A DNA stretch of 10,002 nt from Acidobacteriota bacterium (GTDB lineage Bacteria; Acidobacteriota; Terriglobia; Terriglobales; Acidobacteriaceae), in assembly GCA_021810175.1 (NCBI GenBank), contig JAJZJJ010000055.1, forward strand, positions 1 through 10,002, written 5' to 3'. Position numbers and translations under genes: made by a program. Below, in pieces: positions 1-8,490 of the stretch (the first letter of the stretch is position 1; each line of letters opens with the position of its first letter). The notes below the pieces were generated by a model, which worked only from the letters and a program-made list of their open reading frames with translations, was not told the origin of the DNA and ran no database searches.

Positions 1-710
1 TGAATAACGGCTTTCATGCGCGGTCTTCCGAATCCGCGAACACGATCGTTCGCGTCGAGGATGTGTGGAAGAGCTACGACGACGGCGCGATTCAGGTGCT
101 GAACGGCGTAAGCCTGACGGCGGAGGCCGGCGAATCCGTGGCCCTCTGCGGCCCCTCGGGCTGCGGCAAGAGCACACTGCTGCATCTGCTGGGCGGACTG
201 GACGAGCCGGACCGCGGGCAGGTTCGCGTGAACGGAAGAGAGCCGGCGAATCGTCGCACTTCGCTGCAGCTGCTGCGGCATGAGGTCGGGTTCGTCTTTC
301 AGCTCCACAATCTGATTCCGGATCTGACGCTCGAAGAAAACTGCATGATTCCGGCGGTGGCGGCGGGAACTCCGCGCGAGGCGGCACGGGAACGGCTGGC
401 GCAGCTGGCGGAGCGCACAGGCCTGAGCCATCGCCTGCGGCAGCGCATCCAGAAGCTATCCGGAGGCGAACGCCAGCGGACGGCGCTGTGCCGTGCGCTG
501 ATGAACCGCCCGCAGATTTTGCTGGCCGACGAGCCGACGGGATCGCTGGACGAACGCACCAGCGGACAGATCTTCGAGCTGCTGCTAGAGCTGGTGGAGC
601 ACGAAGGCATCACGCTGGTGATGGCGACGCATGATCGGCAACTGGCGCGGCGCTGCGATCGTCTGGTGGAGATGCGGGACGGAAGAATCTGCGAGCCGGC
701 ACTGAACTGA
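1..710 (+). CDS. ABC transporter ATP-binding protein, LolD/MacB type (start codon cut by window edge)
   Basis: This is the ATPase subunit of an ABC system of the LolD/MacB/FtsE class. These ATPases pair with FtsX-like permeases to move lipoproteins or peptides or to do work at the envelope. Visible motifs, numbered from the inferred start, are Walker A GPSGCGKST (51-59), a Q-loop (VFQLHN), signature LSGGERQ (153-159), Walker B ending in Asp177-Glu178, a D-loop (SLDE) and the switch His211 in ATHD. The frame is open to base 1, and bases 1-2 (TG) followed by AAT AAC fit an ATG whose A lies just outside. That gives 236 residues, normal for the family. The in-frame GTG at 63 would delete the first beta strand (IVRVEDV), so I reject it. 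The gene lies 18 bases before the CcoN-like gene, suggesting one operon. The partner permease would have to lie upstream. The substrate is unknown. Confidence 0.93.
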   Translation, partial: NNGFHARSSESANTIVRVEDVWKSYDDGAIQVLNGVSLTAEAGESVALCGPSGCGKSTLLHLLGGLDEPDRGQVRVNGREPANRRTSLQLLRHEVGFVFQLHNLIPDLTLEENCMIPAVAAGTPREAARERLAQLAERTGLSHRLRQRIQKLSGGERQRTALCRALMNRPQILLADEPTGSLDERTSGQIFELLLELVEHEGITLVMATHDRQLARRCDRLVEMRDGRICEPALN

Positions 711-728
711 GGATTCGGAATACGGGCC

Positions 729-2105
729 ATGAACTACTCCACAACAGCTGAGATCCTGAAGACGCCGGAGAATCGGATGACCGCCTCCGCGCCGCGGAGA
801 AACTCCGCGGAGGCGGGGACGCCCAGCGTGCTGACGCTGACGGCATGGTACGCGGTCGCGTGGATGTCGCTGTCCAACGCGATCGGCGTGGGGCTGGCGG
901 TGCTGCTGCTGTGGCCGCATCCGGGCCGATGGCTGGGCGAGTGGAGCTACGGCCGCTGGATGCCCGTGCATATGAACACGCAGCTCTACGGATGGGCCAG
1001 CCTGCCGCTGGTGGCGTGGCTGCTGCGGATTTACGAGGCGGATCGCGGCGAGCTGGCGCGCTGGAGCCGGGCGGCCCTGCTGTTGTGGTCGGCCGCGCTG
1101 GCGCTGGGCTCCATCTCGTGGCTGGACGGGCATAACAGCGGCAAGCTGTTTCTGAACTGGACCGGATATGCGCGAGTGTTCTTCCCGCTGGCGATTGTGT
1201 TTCTGTGGTGCGTTCTGGCGGCGGCGCTGGCCGCGCACTGGCGGCATCCGAAGAATGCATCGCGCGCGGTGCGCATGGCGAAAGCAGGGGGCCTGGTGCT
1301 GCTGCTGATGGTTCCGCTGGCGATTTACGTCGCCGCCAGCCCGGGTATCTATCCGCCGGTGAATCCGGCGAGCGGAGGGCCCACGGGGGCAAGCCAGCTG
1401 GAGTCGGTGCTGATCATCGTGCTGATCCTGTTTATTCTGCCCTACGGGGTGAGCCGCCGCGCCGAACACGGGAAGCGCTGGATTGTAACTTCGTGGGTAG
1501 CATTTGCGACCGAGGCGCTGCTGTGCCTCTCGCTCGGACGCCACGATGTGAGCAATTACCGGCCGACGCAGATCATCAGCCTGGGCAGTCTGCTGCTGTG
1601 GGTGCCGCTGATGCCGGCGTACTACAGCGCATTTGTGTGGAGGGAGAACACAAGGCTGTGGCGCAGAGCGGTGCTGGCGTGGTGGGCGGTGCTGATTCCC
1701 TCGGGATGGTGCCTGTTTCTGCCGGTGGTGCTCGACCGGCTGAAATTCACCGACGGGCTGGTGGGGCATTCGCTGCTGGCGATGGCGGGCTTTGTCACGA
1801 GCCTGCTGGTGCTGTTGCTGATCGGACTGCTGGGCGAGGATGGGGACGCATTCCAGACGCGCTGGTCGTTCATTGCATGGCAGGCGGGTACGGCCACGTA
1901 TATCGCGATCATGTTTATCGCCGGCTGGATCGAAGGCGGCGATCCAGCGTTTACCATGACTTCAAACACCACACGCAATACGATCTATTTCATACGGCTG
2001 CTTTGCGGAATCGCAATGACGGCCGCGTCGTGGGAGTGGCTGTGGCAGCTGACGGTGCGCATACGCGCCAGAGGCCGCGCGGCGGAGAGAGGCGTGGCAG
2101 GATAA
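729..2105 (+). CDS. CcoN-like (cbb3 oxidase subunit I-like) 12-helix membrane protein, apparently lacking the CuB site
   Basis: This is a polytopic inner-membrane protein of about 12 helices, the fold size of haem-copper oxidase subunit I. Residues 75-85 (GR-x2-P-x-H-x-N) match the CcoN helix that carries a low-spin haem b ligand, here His81. A TD-x3-GH segment (His347) matches the CcoN helix that carries the b3 and b ligands. The second histidine of that pair is Leu349. The CcoN GPHH stretch is replaced by GRHD (His272, Asp273), and the GHN stretch of helix VI is absent around Thr219-Val227. Copper-dependent oxygen reduction therefore looks unlikely; electron transfer or a structural role is inferred. 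The gene sits between the ABC ATPase and two membrane/cytochrome genes with 3-base spacing downstream. An alternative ATG at 777 has a better ribosome-binding site (GGAG, six bases upstream). The 16 residues before it use less typical codons, so 777 may be the true start. Alternatively it is a very divergent but active oxidase subunit. Confidence 0.72.
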   Translation: MNYSTTAEILKTPENRMTASAPRRNSAEAGTPSVLTLTAWYAVAWMSLSNAIGVGLAVLLLWPHPGRWLGEWSYGRWMPVHMNTQLYGWASLPLVAWLLRIYEADRGELARWSRAALLLWSAALALGSISWLDGHNSGKLFLNWTGYARVFFPLAIVFLWCVLAAALAAHWRHPKNASRAVRMAKAGGLVLLLMVPLAIYVAASPGIYPPVNPASGGPTGASQLESVLIIVLILFILPYGVSRRAEHGKRWIVTSWVAFATEALLCLSLGRHDVSNYRPTQIISLGSLLLWVPLMPAYYSAFVWRENTRLWRRAVLAWWAVLIPSGWCLFLPVVLDRLKFTDGLVGHSLLAMAGFVTSLLVLLLIGLLGEDGDAFQTRWSFIAWQAGTATYIAIMFIAGWIEGGDPAFTMTSNTTRNTIYFIRLLCGIAMTAASWEWLWQLTVRIRARGRAAERGVAG

Positions 2106-2108
2106 GCG

Positions 2109-2513
2109 ATGAGAAATAACAGAAGAACGTGGCTTTTGCTGTATCAGCTGGGAGCAGGACTGTGCGACACCAGCACGGGGGCGATGCTGATCGCCGCTCC
2201 GGCGTGGACCTTCCGGCTGATGGGGCTGCATATTGTGCCTCATCCGATTGCATTTGTGCGATTTGTCGGGGTGTTTGTGCTGGGCGTGGGGCTGAGCTAT
2301 CTGCAGCCTGTGCTGCGCCTGCCGATGCGCGAGTGGCGCGGGCAGTGGTCGGCGACGGCAATTATTCGCAGCGGTGTGGCGCTGCTGATCGCATGGCAGG
2401 TGGCGAGCGGCGGACTGGAACGGGGATGGCTGACGGTCGCGGCCACTGACGCAATTCTCGCTTCCGTACAGTGGGCCGGGCTTTCCCGCAACTGGTTGAA
2501 CTTTGCCGACTGA
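2109..2513 (+). CDS. Small four-helix membrane protein of unknown function
   Basis: The product is 134 residues with four likely membrane helices at roughly 9-31, 46-68, 82-100 and 106-124, and a basic N-terminus (RNNRR). I do not recognise a named family. Features that look conserved are the first helix (QLGAGLCD), the amphipathic link RLMGL with HPIAFVRFVG, and Arg87 inside the third helix. It has no cysteine pair, no haem-binding motif and no signal peptide. The ATG lies 3 bases after the stop of the CcoN-like gene, and its own stop is 4 bases before the preferred start of the fusion gene, so it is almost certainly co-translated with both. By position it could be an assembly factor or small subunit of the putative complex, comparable in place but not in sequence to CcoQ. 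That role is inference only. Confidence 0.8.
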   Translation: MRNNRRTWLLLYQLGAGLCDTSTGAMLIAAPAWTFRLMGLHIVPHPIAFVRFVGVFVLGVGLSYLQPVLRLPMREWRGQWSATAIIRSGVALLIAWQVASGGLERGWLTVAATDAILASVQWAGLSRNWLNFAD

Positions 2514-2517
2514 GCGG

Positions 2518-4437
2518 ATGGCGGCAGCGGAGCATCGAACGCCGGCCTTCGACGGCTGGCGCGGAATGGTGCTGGTCGCCGCCACGTATATTTACTTCCT
2601 GATCTTCGCGCAGTTCGGATTCCTGCAGAGGCTGACCGATGCGGGTATCGGCGCTGCGGCGCTCAAGCCGATCCTGGCGGCGATGGCTGCCGGTGGGATT
2701 GCCGCCAGTCTTGCGGCCGGACGGATGGGCCAGCGGTCGGCCGGACGGCGTCTGCCAATGGCGCTGCTGGGTTGTGCGATCGCCGCCGGGTTGACGCTGG
2801 TGCCGCTGAATCGGGCCGGAGCGGCGGCCATCTCGCTGCTGATTGGGATTTCACTCGGCACTCTGACCGTGACGCTGGTGAGCAATCTGCGGCTCTGGGC
2901 GGGCGCGCGGCGTCCGCTGCTGTGGGTGGGGCTGGGAACGGGCCTGGGCTACTGGATCTGCAATTTCCCCGCGCTCTTTACGGCTTTGCCGCAACACATT
3001 GCCATGGCCGCGATGGCGGCCTGCTTGGCGGCCCTGCCAGCGGCTGCGAGCGGACGCGCGGATGCCGCGCCGGAGTCTCCCGCTTCGGCAACCGAAATCG
3101 ATCGCAGCAAGCCGGTGGCGTTCGGACTGGTGCTGGCGTGGTTTACGGCGCTGGTATGGCTCGACTCGGCGGCCTTTTTCATCATTCAGAATTCACCGGC
3201 GTTGAAGGCGGGAACCTGGCAGGGCGCGGCGCACCTGTGGCGCACCGGAGCTGTGCACCTGGTGGCGGCGATCGCCTGTGTGTGGCTGCTGGCGAGGCGC
3301 GGGACCGCAACGGCCCTGCTGGCCGCGTTCGGGTGCCTGGCGGGCGCGTGTCTGCTGCTGCTGAATCCGGCGCACGGCAGCGCAGCGGCATTTCTGTATC
3401 CGGCTGGCGTATCGCTCTACTCCGTGGCGCTGGTGGCGTACCCATCGCTGCTGTTGGGTGGCGTGACGGCGGAGCAGCGGTCGCGCCGGGCGGGGTGGAT
3501 TTACGCGGTCGCGGGATGGATGGGGTCGGCTATGGGAATCGGCATGGCGCAGCATCTGCATCGCATTCCGGTGTGGTTTGTCGCGGCTGCGGCGGTGCTC
3601 TTTCTCGTGCCGATGGTGGTGCGCTACGGCAGAACCTACTGGCGCGAGGCCGTGGCTCTGGTGCTGGTGCTGGCGACGTCGTGGGGCGTGGAGCATCTGC
3701 TTGCGGGGCATGCGAAACCCGCGTCATTAACAGCGGTGGAGCGCGGGCGTCAGGTCTATATCTCCGAGGGCTGCATCAACTGCCACTCGCAGTATGTGCG
3801 GCCGGGTTCTCCGGATGTGCAGATGTGGGGGCCGGCGGGAAATCTGGAAGCGATCCGGCATGAGCATCCGCCGCTGATCGGCAATCGGCGCGAGGGGCCC
3901 GATCTGACCAATGTGGGCGCGCGCCGCTCGCGCCTGTGGCTGCGGATTCATCTGATCGATCCGCGCGCGGTGAGCTACGGATCGATCATGCCCAGCTACG
4001 CCTATCTGTTTCGCGACCAGCGCGGCGATGACCTGGTGGCGTATCTGGCCAGCCTGAAGAATCCGGGTGCGCTGCGACATGTGTTGCATGAGGCTGCGAC
4101 GTGGGAGCCCGCGAGATCCGCCGCGGGAGAAGCGGCGCACATCGATGGCGCGAAACTGTACACGGAGTTCTGTGCAACGTGCCATTCGCCACGCGGAGAG
4201 GTGCGGCAGCGATGGGGCGGGGATTTTCGGCACCGGCCGCCGCGGCTGGACAGCGCCACGCTCAACAAAATGGCCGAGGGGAAAACCCCGGCGGAGCTGA
4301 AGCTGCATCTGGAGCGGATCATCAAGTTCGGTGTGCCGAAGACCAGTATGCCGGGGCATGAGTACTTTCCGGACGCACAGATCGCGGCGCTGGCGAATTA
4401 CCTGATGAGCCGGGATCACGCTTCGGCTACGAATTGA
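2518..4437 (+). CDS. Fusion: MFS-type transporter domain + CcoO-like cytochrome c + second cytochrome c
   Basis: The 639-residue product has three parts. Residues about 15-370 hold 12 predicted helices in two six-helix halves, with a loop of MFS motif-A style between helices 2 and 3 (AGRMGQRSAGRR, lacking the usual Asp). A thirteenth helix (about 376-392) anchors residues about 405-515. These resemble CcoO/FixO of cbb3 oxidase: an RG-x-VYI-x-EGC lead, CINCH (Cys419, Cys422, His423) with SQ-x-VRP, a GPDL-x-NVG segment, and axial Met491 in IMPSYAYL. Residues about 540-632 form another class-I cytochrome c: CATCH (Cys552, Cys555, His556), axial Met611 in TSMPG. Both haem domains should lie in the periplasm. 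The ATG at 2518 is chosen; TTG at 2503 overlaps the previous gene. The end overlaps the opposing gene by 11 bases. Likely role: electron transfer coupled to, or delivering cofactor through, a transporter-like module; the substrate is unknown. Confidence 0.85.
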   Translation: MAAAEHRTPAFDGWRGMVLVAATYIYFLIFAQFGFLQRLTDAGIGAAALKPILAAMAAGGIAASLAAGRMGQRSAGRRLPMALLGCAIAAGLTLVPLNRAGAAAISLLIGISLGTLTVTLVSNLRLWAGARRPLLWVGLGTGLGYWICNFPALFTALPQHIAMAAMAACLAALPAAASGRADAAPESPASATEIDRSKPVAFGLVLAWFTALVWLDSAAFFIIQNSPALKAGTWQGAAHLWRTGAVHLVAAIACVWLLARRGTATALLAAFGCLAGACLLLLNPAHGSAAAFLYPAGVSLYSVALVAYPSLLLGGVTAEQRSRRAGWIYAVAGWMGSAMGIGMAQHLHRIPVWFVAAAAVLFLVPMVVRYGRTYWREAVALVLVLATSWGVEHLLAGHAKPASLTAVERGRQVYISEGCINCHSQYVRPGSPDVQMWGPAGNLEAIRHEHPPLIGNRREGPDLTNVGARRSRLWLRIHLIDPRAVSYGSIMPSYAYLFRDQRGDDLVAYLASLKNPGALRHVLHEAATWEPARSAAGEAAHIDGAKLYTEFCATCHSPRGEVRQRWGGDFRHRPPRLDSATLNKMAEGKTPAELKLHLERIIKFGVPKTSMPGHEYFPDAQIAALANYLMSRDHASATN

Positions 4438-4867
4438 AGAAGAGCAGCAGCGCGACGGCGAGAACAACGACTCCCAGGGCAACGGCGAGGGCGTTTCCGT
4501 CCAGCTCGAACACGCGTCCGGCGGCGCAGGCGCGCAGCGGCGGGATACCGTCGGGATCGTGAAAGGTTCCGCCATAGACTCGGCGAAAGATTGCGGCAAC
4601 GATGAAGCCGGCAAGCGATGCAGCCATGAGGATCGCAGCCAGAATTACGCGCGAGCGGACGCCGGGGCCCGGCCACCAGAGCAGCGCGATTTCCGGCACA
4701 GCAAGAAAGAACGCGGTAAAGCTCTGCCATACAACGTGAAAACGGGCATGTCCCGGCCAGAGCGGATGGGTCGCGTGGGTCCGGTTGAGGTCGATGGCCA
4801 GCGGAGCCAGTCCCTGACCGGCTGCGAGGGCGGAGAGCATGAGTCTCGGGAGAAACGGACCCGACAT
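4427..4867 (-). CDS. Four-helix membrane protein with His-rich N-terminal signature (possibly DUF6640-like)
   Basis: The product is 146 residues with membrane helices near 7-25, 47-66, 73-95 and 126-143. Between helices 1 and 2 lies the segment DLN-x-TH-x2-HPLWPGHARFH (residues 26-44), with four histidines (31, 34, 40, 44). I associate this signature with a small uncharacterised membrane family, possibly DUF6640; that assignment is from memory and uncertain. There is no haem motif. It is the last gene of the minus-strand cytochrome operon, 33 bases after the multihaem gene. Its 3' end overlaps the end of the opposing fusion gene. The ribosome-binding site before the ATG is weak, so translation may depend on the upstream gene. 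Function is unknown. The histidines could bind a metal or haem, but this is inference. Confidence 0.8.
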   Translation of the reverse strand: MSGPFLPRLMLSALAAGQGLAPLAIDLNRTHATHPLWPGHARFHVVWQSFTAFFLAVPEIALLWWPGPGVRSRVILAAILMAASLAGFIVAAIFRRVYGGTFHDPDGIPPLRACAAGRVFELDGNALAVALGVVVLAVALLLFFNS

Positions 4868-4888: not shown

Positions 4889-4916
4889 GGCGCCTGCGCT
4901 TTAGAGCGTAGGCGCC
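4889..4916. repeat. 12-bp inverted repeat over the stop codon of the multihaem gene
   Basis: Arms at 4889-4900 and 4905-4916 pair over 12 positions, with one G-T (wobble) position and a four-base loop TTAG. The loop contains the stop codon of the minus-strand cytochrome gene. No T tract follows on either strand, so a classical intrinsic terminator is unlikely. The hairpin may attenuate the downstream 4427-4867 gene or protect the 3' end of the upstream cytochrome message. Confidence 0.6.
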
Positions 4917-6352
4917 ACGCTTCCACTGAGACCGAGCTGGCTCAGGATTTTCGGATTGGTCTCATCCACGGCCAGGAGGTTGTGGCAAAGGTTGCAGTCG
5001 TTGCTCAGGACGGTACCCGAAGCGGTGGCATGGCTGCCGTCGTGGCAGCGGAAGCAACCTGGGTAATCCATGTGGCCGATGTTGTTGGGATAGGTCCCCC
5101 AGCTCACCTTCATGCTGGGGAAGACGTTGCGTTTATAGAGGGCGACGAGGCTGCGGGCAGCGCTGTCCACCTGCGTGCGCTGGTTTTGCCACACGTCCGG
5201 ATACTGGGTGCGGTAGAAGTTGTCCAGTTGTTCGGGAATGACGCTGGCGGCTTCCGCCTGCGACTTGTAGGTCGCCTGGATGAGCTTGAGGCCTTCCTTG
5301 TGGACGTAGGGCAAGCTGGGACTGGGGCTGCCGTCGGTCATGGCCTGATCGATAGCCTGTTCGGCGGTCTGGAAGACGTGGGTCGCCTGGTTGTGGCAGT
5401 CCATGCAGTCCATGACGCGGGTGTAGCCCTTGATGGGACCCTTCCAGCCCTGCTGGACAAACGTCCTTGTGCCGCCTTTGCCGTTGGGCATGCTGACGGC
5501 AATGATGTTCTGGGCGTCCTTGTCCGTTGAGGTGTAGACGAAATGGTTGAGGTGAGCGCCGTGGATGCCGCTGCGACGGCGCAGGGAATCCACGCCGCCC
5601 AGGTGCAGGACCAGCACCGTGCGGGCCTCAGTGTTTGCCTTGTCGTTGCCAAAGGAGGTGAGCACCAGCAGGCGATCGCCGACAAAGCGGCTGGGGTTGT
5701 GGCATCGCTCGCAGGTAGCGCGTGCCGGCCGCAGGCCGGAGAGGGGGACGGTAATGGGACGCGGATAGGTGTGGAAGGCGACCTCCACAACCTGTTTGGT
5801 GCCGTTGACCTTTGCTCGGAAGTAGGCCTCCATGCCCGAGCCGACATGGCACTCCACACAGGCCACATGCGAGTGCGGAGACGCCTGATACGCGACCCAT
5901 TGCGGCCTCATCACATGGCAGGAGGTGCCGCAAAACGGGGCCGAGTCCATGTAGGCAACGCCGCGATAGGTCGCGACGCTGACAATCGCGAGGTTGACCA
6001 TGGTGGCGATTCCGACGATGAGGACACCGTGACGGAAGAGGGGATCGCCAAGATGGATGGCCGGATATTCGGCGGGAATCGCGCCGGCTTTCAGCAGTTC
6101 CCGCCGCCGCTGCAGCATGCCCACCGGGATGAGAATGAGCCCGAGGATAAACAGAGCGGGCAGACCCAGGAAAAATATCAGTCCCAGGTAGGGATTTTCG
6201 AACCTGCCCGTGAGCAGGTTCTCAATCCAGTAGAAGACGAGGGTTATGCCCGAGGCCGTGGTGAGTCCCGAACCAATTAAAGTGACCCGATTGTTTCCGA
6301 AATAGAAGAACGGCTGCAGCCAATTCTTCCTGATCCTGGCAAAGACGCTCAC
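4901..6352 (-). CDS. Membrane-anchored multihaem cytochrome c, NapC/NirT type, six haem-binding motifs
   Basis: The product is 483 residues. Three hydrophobic helices (about 23-47, 55-80, 108-128) precede a large periplasmic part. Haem attachment motifs are CGTSCH (141-146, spacing C-X3-CH, followed by VM as in NapC/NrfH CHxM), CVECH (165-169), CERCH (214-218), CMDCH (316-320), CFRCH (433-437) and CNLCH (453-457). NapC/NirT/NrfH proteins usually pass electrons from menaquinol or ubiquinol to periplasmic partners. This protein is much longer, so it may combine a quinol-oxidising head with extra haems. The GTG start is supported by AGGAG seven bases upstream. It lies 24 bases after a small cytochrome c gene, a likely electron partner, and 33 bases before a four-helix protein gene. 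The physiological acceptor cannot be told from the sequence. Confidence 0.92.
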   Translation of the reverse strand: MSVFARIRKNWLQPFFYFGNNRVTLIGSGLTTASGITLVFYWIENLLTGRFENPYLGLIFFLGLPALFILGLILIPVGMLQRRRELLKAGAIPAEYPAIHLGDPLFRHGVLIVGIATMVNLAIVSVATYRGVAYMDSAPFCGTSCHVMRPQWVAYQASPHSHVACVECHVGSGMEAYFRAKVNGTKQVVEVAFHTYPRPITVPLSGLRPARATCERCHNPSRFVGDRLLVLTSFGNDKANTEARTVLVLHLGGVDSLRRRSGIHGAHLNHFVYTSTDKDAQNIIAVSMPNGKGGTRTFVQQGWKGPIKGYTRVMDCMDCHNQATHVFQTAEQAIDQAMTDGSPSPSLPYVHKEGLKLIQATYKSQAEAASVIPEQLDNFYRTQYPDVWQNQRTQVDSAARSLVALYKRNVFPSMKVSWGTYPNNIGHMDYPGCFRCHDGSHATASGTVLSNDCNLCHNLLAVDETNPKILSQLGLSGSVAPTL

Positions 6353-6376: not shown

Positions 6377-6700
6377 TTATTTCTTCTGCAGCGTGCGAAT
6401 GTACGCCACGACGTCCTTAATTTGCTGGGCAGACAGCTTCCCCTTATAGGCCGGCATCCTGCCCTTACCGTTTTCGGTGGCGGCAATCAGCTGGCTTTCC
6501 GGCGCCTTTACGAGCGCGGCGGCTTTGAACGACGGGATATGCATCATCTTGCCCATGGGCGTGCTGGCCGTTCCGTCCTGGCCGTGGCACATGGCACACC
6601 GCTCCTTGAAAATCTGTTCGCCTTTGCTCTGAGCGAGCAGGGGAACCGCGAGTGAAGCTGCGAGCAGGGTCAGACCCCAGGTTCGAATGCGTCGATTCAT
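6377..6700 (-). CDS. Secreted mono-haem class I cytochrome c
   Basis: The product is 107 residues. A Sec signal peptide is clear: basic MNRRIR, a hydrophobic core, and a probable cleavage site after LLA (residue 23). The mature part of about 84 residues carries CAMCH (Cys35, Cys38, His39) and a C-terminal KGRMPAYKGKLS segment giving axial Met82, followed by the usual last helix (QQIKDVVAYIRTL). It is a small soluble periplasmic electron carrier of the cytochrome c6/c551-like kind. The ATG at 6700 is preceded by AGGAG seven bases upstream. The frame stays open for 94 more codons upstream, but the signal peptide fixes this start. It is the first gene of an operon with the membrane multihaem cytochrome 24 bases downstream, and probably shuttles electrons to or from it. 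Confidence 0.93.
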   Translation of the reverse strand: MNRRIRTWGLTLLAASLAVPLLAQSKGEQIFKERCAMCHGQDGTASTPMGKMMHIPSFKAAALVKAPESQLIAATENGKGRMPAYKGKLSAQQIKDVVAYIRTLQKK

Positions 6701-7190
6701 GTTGCTTCTCCTATTCGTGATCTGTGGCGCCTTCCAAACAGCGGTTGGCATCGAAGTGGCACTGGAGAGTGCACACTCAGGGGTTGGCGAGTTGCGTCTC
6801 AATCTGAAAGAAGGCGCGGAAACAGCGTCCGTCTTACGGAAAACCGGGAATCTCTGTGGCTGATGGCCGGAACCCGCGGCTGCTGCCAGGGTCCGCGTCA
6901 CGGAAACCGGCGGCAGGAAGGGCAGGATGTCATCCCGATGAATGGTTCGTAATGTTCGTTCGTAAAACAATGCTGCCCGCATGCCTGCGCCTGCCTCAGT
7001 CAGCTGTGCTTATCCTGCGTGGGCCCGGGATACATCCAGAGACTTTCGTCTGGGACTGCTTTGGAAACACCCAGTCTGAAATAGCCCGATGGCAAAGTCA
7101 AATACCTAAAGTAAGGGGATTGGAGGCTCCATGGGACACCGGGAACCGGAGATGATCGCCGCGTAAGTGATTGATAATACGGGTCACGAT

Positions 7191-8038: not shown

Positions 8039-8124
8039 GCGGAAGTGGTGAAATTGGCAGACACACCATCTTGAGGGGGTGGCGCCCAAAAGGCATGGGG
8101 GTTCAAGTCCCCCCTTCCGCACCA
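8039..8124 (+). tRNA. tRNA-Leu, anticodon GAG, CCA encoded
   Basis: A full class II cloverleaf can be folded. The acceptor GCGGAAG pairs with CTTCCGC. A three-base D-stem GTG/CAC has the loop AAATTGGCAGA. The anticodon stem CCATC/GGTGG carries loop TTGAGGG with GAG at the anticodon position. The long variable arm has GCC/GGC pairing, and the T-arm is GGGGG/CCCCC with loop TTCAAGT. The discriminator is A and CCA is encoded (8122-8124). It reads CUC/CUU leucine codons. It lies 63 bases before secG with no terminator between, so the two may be transcribed together. Confidence 0.97.
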
Positions 8125-8187: not shown

Positions 8188-8490
8188 GTGCTTTTCTATT
8201 TCGTGATTGCCATCCACATTCTGGTGAGCCTGCTGCTCATCATCATCATCCTGCTTCAGCAGGGCAAGAGCGCCGATTTGGCCGCCGCCTTCGGTGGACA
8301 GGGTTCTCAGACCGCCTTCGGACCGCGTTCCGCAGCCAATATCCTCACGAAAACGACGTCGTGGCTGGCGGCTGTCTTCATTCTGACTTCCATCACCCTG
8401 ACAGTGATGGAGCAGCATCGCGTGGCCGGAATCCACTCAGTTTTGTCTGGTTCCTCGACGACGCAGACGACACCGGCGAAGAAGAAGTAG
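8188..8490 (+). CDS. secG: Preprotein translocase subunit SecG
   Basis: SecG is the small accessory subunit of the SecYEG channel; it assists SecA-driven export across the inner membrane. The product is 100 residues with two membrane helices (2-23 and about 57-74). Between them is the family hallmark QQGKSADLAAAFGG (24-37), then GSQTAFGPR and a Thr/Ser-rich second helix (LTSITLTV). A short polar, lysine-ending tail follows. Length and layout are normal for the family. The start is GTG at 8188, with GAGG 13 bases upstream and a purine-rich AAAGAAA close by. It follows tRNA-Leu directly, an arrangement also seen in other bacteria, and is closed by a strong hairpin terminator 33 bases downstream. 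Confidence 0.97.
   Translation: MLFYFVIAIHILVSLLLIIIILLQQGKSADLAAAFGGQGSQTAFGPRSAANILTKTTSWLAAVFILTSITLTVMEQHRVAGIHSVLSGSSTTQTTPAKKK

What the first reader, a model, noticed from the sequence alone, without database searches (positions are those of the whole stretch)
2518..4437. MFS-type transporter fused to CcoO-like and second cytochrome c domains
One open frame joins about 12 transporter-like helices to two haem c domains through a thirteenth anchoring helix. The first haem domain carries CcoO hallmarks (CINCH-SQ-x-VRP, GPDL-x-NVG, IMPSYAYL). MFS carriers and oxidase cytochrome subunits are normally separate proteins. A fusion suggests transport coupled to periplasmic electron flow, or a transporter-derived scaffold replacing the usual CcoO/CcoP anchors. 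The domain calls are seen in the sequence; the coupling is inference.
Basis: partly seen in the sequence, partly recalled or inferred. Interest (0 to 1): 0.8.

Follow-up and report, generated by a model that had tools for sequence, protein, structure and literature searches.

The report
Transporter-cytochrome fusion beside a pseudo-oxidase
In a family of soil bacteria a transporter is fused to electron-carrying cytochrome domains and sits beside a respiratory oxidase core that has lost key residues needed to reduce oxygen, so genes counted until now as a low-oxygen respiratory oxidase probably do something else.

Summary

More telling is the gene upstream (729-2105). It has the fold of CcoN, the catalytic subunit of cbb3 oxidases, but all 21 copies checked lack the helix-6 CuB His, the active-site Tyr and one low-spin haem His; 18 of 18 reference CcoN keep all. 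Whether the CuB His pair survives depends on the alignment; in the window protein it does not. Normal O2 reduction is unlikely. Both belong to a six-gene block (isoprenyl diphosphate synthase, MacB/LolD-type ABC transporter, pseudo-CcoN, small membrane protein, fusion), in the same order in 20 of 20 loci. MFS conservation follows the cavity helices, as in a working carrier.

Two genomes that fit Acidobacterium capsulatum and Terriglobus roseus have no other CcoO. Both strains are published as having a high-affinity cbb3 oxidase, puzzlingly silent at low O2. That "cbb3" is most likely this operon. Coupling of electron flow to transport is inference.

The parts
3..710 (+). LolD/MacB-type ABC transporter ATPase, cut by the window's start; third gene of the conserved block
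   Evidence: Pfam ABC_tran E 1.1e-37; best NCBIfam model LolD, below its cut-off; same position in 20 of 20 loci
729..2105 (+). Pseudo-CcoN: CcoN fold with TM2 His (H81, 969-971) and b3-ligand His (H347, 1767-1769) kept; TM6 CuB His, active-site Tyr and second low-spin haem His (L349, 1773-1775) lost
   Evidence: structure matches; HH-align; residue table; counts over 120 proteins
2109..2513 (+). Small membrane protein (134 aa, only a sub-threshold DUF4345 match)
   Evidence: fused in frame to the pseudo-CcoN in L141 and L142
2518..4437 (+). MFS-CcoO-cytochrome c fusion, 639 aa
2551..3630 (+). MFS domain, residues 12-371, 12 helices
   Evidence: AF2 model and VIA-align
3640..3705 (+). Helix 13 (residues 375-396), most simply the CcoO anchor helix
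3742..4023 (+). CcoO/FixO domain (residues 409-502); CINCH at 3772-3786, axial Met M491
4138..4410 (+). Second mono-haem cytochrome c domain (residues 541-631); CATCH at 4171-4185, axial Met M611

Best explanation
A six-gene operon of Acidobacteriaceae encodes a membrane redox-transport complex that descends from a cbb3-type oxidase but is no longer a normal oxygen reductase. The pseudo-CcoN keeps the CcoN fold and one His at each haem position, but lacks the CuB ligand of helix 6, the active-site Tyr and the second low-spin haem ligand. Its partner CcoO keeps its haem c, and has a second haem c at its C terminus and a whole MFS carrier at its N terminus. Shown by sequence or model: the architecture, the lost residues, the gene order, the conservation pattern. 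Inferred: electrons run between a periplasmic cytochrome c pool, the two haems c and one or two haems b of the pseudo-CcoN, without the O2 chemistry of cbb3, and this electron flow serves a substrate moved by the MFS and by the MacB/LolD-type ABC transporter. The isoprenyl diphosphate synthase in the block (both Asp-rich motifs intact in 20 of 20 loci) makes an isoprenoid lipid the first substrate to test.
Against: No biochemistry exists. The two conserved His might still hold a five-coordinate haem that reacts with O2, NO or peroxide without copper. The CuB pair is unsettled: by MAFFT the window protein and L061 have one His in the first column of the pair and the other 19 copies none; HH-align instead puts there residues that are His-His in 91 of 120 proteins and Asn-Tyr in the window. 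T. roseus grows at 1-2% O2, which Eichorst 2018 took as support for its cbb3. A. capsulatum transcripts were seen by RT-qPCR down to 0.1 uM O2 for 10 min. The substrate is unknown, and an operon can join unrelated functions.
Confidence: 0.5

Rival explanations
1. It is a working, unusual high-affinity cbb3 oxidase (CcoN-CcoO dyad), as published genome surveys assume, with an MFS domain as passenger.
For: Folds and haem-c domains are those of cbb3; where JGI gives a name it mostly reads cbb3-type subunit 1 or 2 or cytochrome c; Eichorst 2018 (PMC5900883, section 9 read) and Trojan 2021 (PMC8407424, sections 5, 11, 14 and passages) count it as such. HH-align leaves two of three CuB His in most relatives.
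Against: Helix-6 CuB His, Tyr and one low-spin haem His absent in 21 of 21 copies. Trojan 2021 could not detect its expression below 10 uM O2 and measured a high Km(app), 113 nM, in T. roseus. No copper-importer motif in the MFS.
Confidence: 0.1
2. The CcoN-like subunit is a different reductase: a haem-only or haem-nonhaem-iron site (NO- or peroxide-reducing) using the b3-type haem at H347 and the invariant helix-6 motif SQLES, fed by the two haems c; the MFS is accessory.
Against: No helix-6 His, and N-Y at the pair in the window protein; the second low-spin haem ligand is missing, so the usual electron route to b3 is cut. MAFFT places the former CuB His one residue away from the reading used here (S222), so the spacing is uncertain. 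NOR families were not aligned residue by residue.
Confidence: 0.22
3. Redox or gas sensor: haem in the pseudo-CcoN and the haems c report O2 or redox state and gate the MFS or the ABC transporter.
For: Loss of catalytic residues with conserved single haem ligands and haem-c sites.
Against: No signalling domain found in the fusion or the block genes scanned.
Confidence: 0.1
4. The MFS is a dead scaffold that only anchors or assembles the cytochromes.
For: Motif A between helices 2 and 3 looks degenerate (six rows shown; motif recalled).
Against: Cavity helices are far more conserved than outer helices; helix 13 can serve as CcoO's anchor.
Confidence: 0.08

Closest known systems
cbb3-type (C-family) cytochrome c oxidase, CcoN-CcoO
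   Same: Folds of both subunits; CcoO haem c with CINCH and MPSY motifs; ccoN upstream of ccoO
   Different: Helix-6 CuB His, active-site Tyr and one low-spin haem His lost in the CcoN partner; CcoO carries an MFS domain and an extra cytochrome c; a small membrane gene lies between the two; no separate CcoP gene in the block; isoprenyl synthase and ABC genes joined to it
Single-chain CcoN-CcoO-cytochrome c proteins of Acidobacteria (L028, 865 aa; L030, 918 aa)
   Same: CcoO followed by cytochrome c domains in one chain
   Different: L028 keeps all seven residues and L030 the motifs shown; no MFS domain
CcoA/CalT MFS copper importers
   Same: An MFS carrier linked to cbb3 oxidases
   Different: A separate protein; its MxxxM (TM7) and HxxxM (TM8) motifs are met here in 1 and 0 of 120
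Cytochrome c-dependent nitric oxide reductase (NorB/NorC)
   Different: No helix-6 His and no His-His pair at its place in the window protein

Membership tests
cbb3-type oxidase, CcoN | CcoN fold | tested here: met
cbb3-type oxidase, CcoN | Six His ligands (two low-spin haem b, one haem b3, three CuB) and the active-site Tyr of helix 7 | tested here: not met
   TM6 His, Tyr and second TM10 His absent in 21 of 21 copies; CuB pair doubtful; controls 18 of 18 keep all
cbb3-type oxidase, CcoO | FixO domain with CxxCH and axial Met | tested here: met
   43 of 43 match FixO; C419, C422, H423, M491 in 120 of 120
cbb3-type oxidase | O2 reduction at a haem b3-CuB centre | not testable with these tools
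   Needs biochemistry; the residues argue against it
Major facilitator superfamily | 12-helix two-bundle MFS fold | tested here: met
Major facilitator superfamily | Transport of a solute | not testable with these tools
   Conservation of cavity helices is in keeping with it
CcoA/CalT copper importers | MxxxM in TM7 and HxxxM in TM8 | tested here: not met
   1 of 120 and 0 of 120; motif positions from passages of PMC6362234
Nitric oxide reductase NorB | Three His and one Glu binding FeB | tested here: inconclusive
   No His in helix-6 columns 207-235, N-Y at the pair in the window protein by HH-align; E225 at a plausible place, but no residue alignment to NorB was made

The most novel reading that the evidence does not exclude
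A retired cbb3 oxidase has become a redox-powered lipid or isoprenoid export machine: an isoprenyl diphosphate synthase makes the substrate, the MFS domain flips it, the haems c and pseudo-CcoN change its redox state at the outer face, and the MacB/LolD-type ABC transporter moves it on. It would wire electron transfer to an MFS carrier by gene fusion, and would explain the silent 'cbb3 oxidase' of Acidobacteriaceae.
Probability: 0.15. Interest if true: 0.9.

Novelty: new variant of a known kind. Interest (0 to 1): 0.7.

Why it matters
Genome surveys infer low-oxygen respiration from ccoN/ccoO genes. Eichorst 2018 (PMC5900883, section 9 read) proposed that acidobacteria with type C or bd oxidases are microaerobes, and Trojan 2021 (PMC8407424, sections 5, 11, 14 and passages read) could not explain why the cbb3 oxidase was silent at low O2. 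If those genes are the pseudo-oxidase operon, the puzzle dissolves and trait predictions for a common group of soil bacteria need correction. An oxidase core stripped of part of its active site and joined to a carrier, an ABC transporter and an isoprenoid enzyme also suggests an unknown use of respiratory electrons, testable by deletion in two cultured soil strains.

Tried and rejected
Assembly join or frameshift artefact: rejected, since 119 other listed proteins and 20 sampled genomes share the fusion. Split homologues: none at E <= 1e-4 among 250 family genomes (a first look limits the candidates scored to 7 per genome, so a weak one could be missed). Two frames there are shorter than 634 aa: G383 (521 aa; held contig piece of 9,937 bp ends within the gene and the match is in two pieces) and a second G189 match at a contig edge (450 aa). 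CcoA-type copper importer: tested, not met. MFS as a replacement anchor: not favoured. Sequence search of the pseudo-CcoN profile against PDB gave nothing meaningful and Pfam COX1 matched only 5 of 46 members at E <= 0.1; fold and HH-align showed the kinship. A text-pattern hunt for more CcoN genes found nothing useful and was replaced by an HMM search.

The table shows a His in the first CuB-pair column of the window protein and of L061, and HH-align reads the pair otherwise, so the sure loss is 3 of 7.

Literature: searches found no papers; for 28, 60, 80, 81, 91 and 92 I saw listings with starts of abstracts. None of these, nor the sections and passages read (PMC8407424, PMC5900883, PMC11636273, PMC6362234), describes this fusion or the lost ligands. 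Only open-licence PubMed Central papers are held. Supplementary tables with locus tags (Trojan 2021 Data Set S1, Eichorst 2018 Table S5) could not be read.

Limits of the counts: one search scored 7997 candidates and listed 120 of 2120 hits; one search scored 7996 and listed 120 of 1338; both lists include the window's own protein. Genome samples are even draws. The CcoN set held 9 sequences; L099 and L101 fell out through a failed text pattern, and both are among the 18. Those 18 were chosen by hand from the hits; NOR and A-type lists in that script were not used. The tree was a quick one without the mixture model. Of the 48 family genomes with a pseudo-CcoN, the 20 and 6 more (G003, G005, G500, G531, G538, G560) were seen to have the fusion; the other 22 were not examined. 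Loci cut by contig ends (L006, L074, L143) are not in the count of 20. L141 and L142 are almost identical and not independent.

Full report

Not an artefact. A search of 250 genomes of the family with the MFS part alone (residues 1-395) found 20 genomes with a match; all matches lie in frames of 634-690 aa, except two cut short (G383, 521 aa, and a second G189 match, 450 aa). No free-standing MFS relative appeared at E <= 1e-4. In 299 genomes of the class, 49 have a match to the whole protein and 8 carry it full length; the other 41 match chiefly its CcoO and cytochrome c part, three of them reaching back to residues 237-338.

Layout. Helix 13 is most simply CcoO's own anchor: the family profile aligns to one of the five PDB CcoO chains matched (P. 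aeruginosa, 8smr_F) from profile position 382, chain residue 15, on; the other four alignments start after the helix. So an MFS carrier seems to have been placed in front of a complete CcoO, and a cytochrome c behind it. After 12 helices, helix 13 leads to the periplasm, where haem c is attached (inference from the usual MFS topology).

An open point. The CuB His pair is unsettled. By MAFFT, two of the 21 copies (the window protein and L061) have a His in its first column and none has the pair. HH-align instead puts window residues N276-Y277 there, a place that is His-His in 91 of 120 proteins. That pair was lost or gained at least six times on a quick tree, so it is not under the strict constraint expected of a copper site. 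In the window protein at most one His of the pair can be present.

The operon. In 20 of 20 loci with enough flank the order is isoprenyl diphosphate synthase, MacB/FtsX-type permease, LolD-type ATPase, pseudo-CcoN, small membrane protein, fusion (Pfam of the first two genes from L002). The window starts inside the ATPase. Of the flank genes tested in the first 13 loci, a metallo-beta-lactamase-fold gene was found in L002, L004 and L065, a DUF6640 gene in L001, L002, L003 and L063, and two others (TolC-like, HrpB-like) in L002 only. Both Asp-rich motifs of the synthase are intact in 20 of 20. In L141 and L142 the pseudo-CcoN and the small protein form one frame of 608 aa, which suggests that they work together. 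The same 8 of 299 class genomes have the full-length fusion and a strong pseudo-CcoN match; four further weak matches (E 1e-7 to 4e-4) are to CcoN genes that rank among the references. All 20 family genomes are among the 48 of 398 with a pseudo-CcoN.

Carrier or scaffold. Mean conservation is 0.73-0.85 in helices 1, 2, 4, 5, 7, 8, 10, 11 and 0.52-0.67 in 3, 6, 9, 12. In MFS carriers the first group lines and gates the cavity and the second faces lipid (established knowledge). Polar residues in helix segments kept in at least 119 of 120 include Y24, Q32, N149, D216, Q224, H247, Y301 and S337. This argues for a working carrier. It is not a copper importer of the CcoA/CalT kind: the motifs described in PMC6362234 (passages read) are met in 1 and 0 of 120.

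The published cbb3 oxidase. Eichorst 2018 (PMC5900883, section 9 read) lists for A. capsulatum ATCC 51196 one type A, one type C and one bd oxidase, and for T. roseus KBS 63 two, one and none. Genome G298 (contig 4,127,356 bp) has one COX1, one FixO (the fusion) and one CydA. G531 (contig 5,227,858 bp) has two COX1, one FixO (the fusion) and no CydA. The lengths equal those I recall for the two strains; the names come from no call. Trojan 2021 (PMC8407424; [quoted passage not shown] In detail, A. capsulatum transcripts were low at 10 uM and fell further, with RT-qPCR signal down to 0.1 uM for 10 min only. The order N, small gene, O fits that description. Passages of the 2024 A. capsulatum paper (PMC11636273) still draw a high-affinity cbb3 branch. 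Against this reading, T. roseus grows at 1-2% O2, which Eichorst took as support; Trojan credits low-affinity oxidases. G560 carries in addition a COX1-matching frame (487 aa) beside a CcoO (194 aa).

Mechanism. Shown: architecture, lost residues, gene order, co-occurrence, conservation pattern. Inferred: electron transfer through the two haems c and residual haem b without cbb3 O2 chemistry, serving a transport process. The isoprenoid as substrate is a guess from operon company. Rivals (a different reductase, a sensor, a dead scaffold, an odd but active oxidase) are given with their tests.

Verdict. The fusion is real and recurrent in sampled Acidobacteriaceae. Its context shows a recast, probably non-respiratory descendant of a cbb3 oxidase. 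New variant of a known kind; interest 0.7.

Noticed in passing
4904-6352 (-): NrfH/NapC-type multihaem cytochrome (483 aa, five CxxCH plus a CGTSCH), next to a single-haem cytochrome c (6380-6982, -); neither was matched in the 13 block-bearing loci.
   Followed up: partly
4430-4867 (-): DUF6640-like small protein (below cut-off) just downstream of the fusion; also near the operon in L001, L002, L003 and L063 (4 of 13 loci).
   Followed up: partly
L141:6279-8102 and L142:6935-8758: Pseudo-CcoN and the small membrane protein fused in one 608-aa frame. Other long pseudo-CcoN frames (G479, G501, G532, G561) were not looked at.
   Followed up: partly
L028, L030, L023: Single-chain CcoN-CcoO-cytochrome c oxidases of Acidobacteria with intact ligand motifs (L028 865 aa, L030 918 aa; L023 cut at the locus end).
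   Followed up: partly
L074 (genome G189): G189 holds a second, partial copy of the fusion on a 3,537-bp contig (450-aa frame at its edge).
   Followed up: no
residues 339 and 343 of the fusion family (TM11): An MxxxM pair in 73 of 120 proteins, in another helix than the copper motif of CalT carriers.
   Followed up: no
8039-8124 (+) and 8188-8490 (+): tRNA-Leu (GAG) followed by secG.
   Followed up: no
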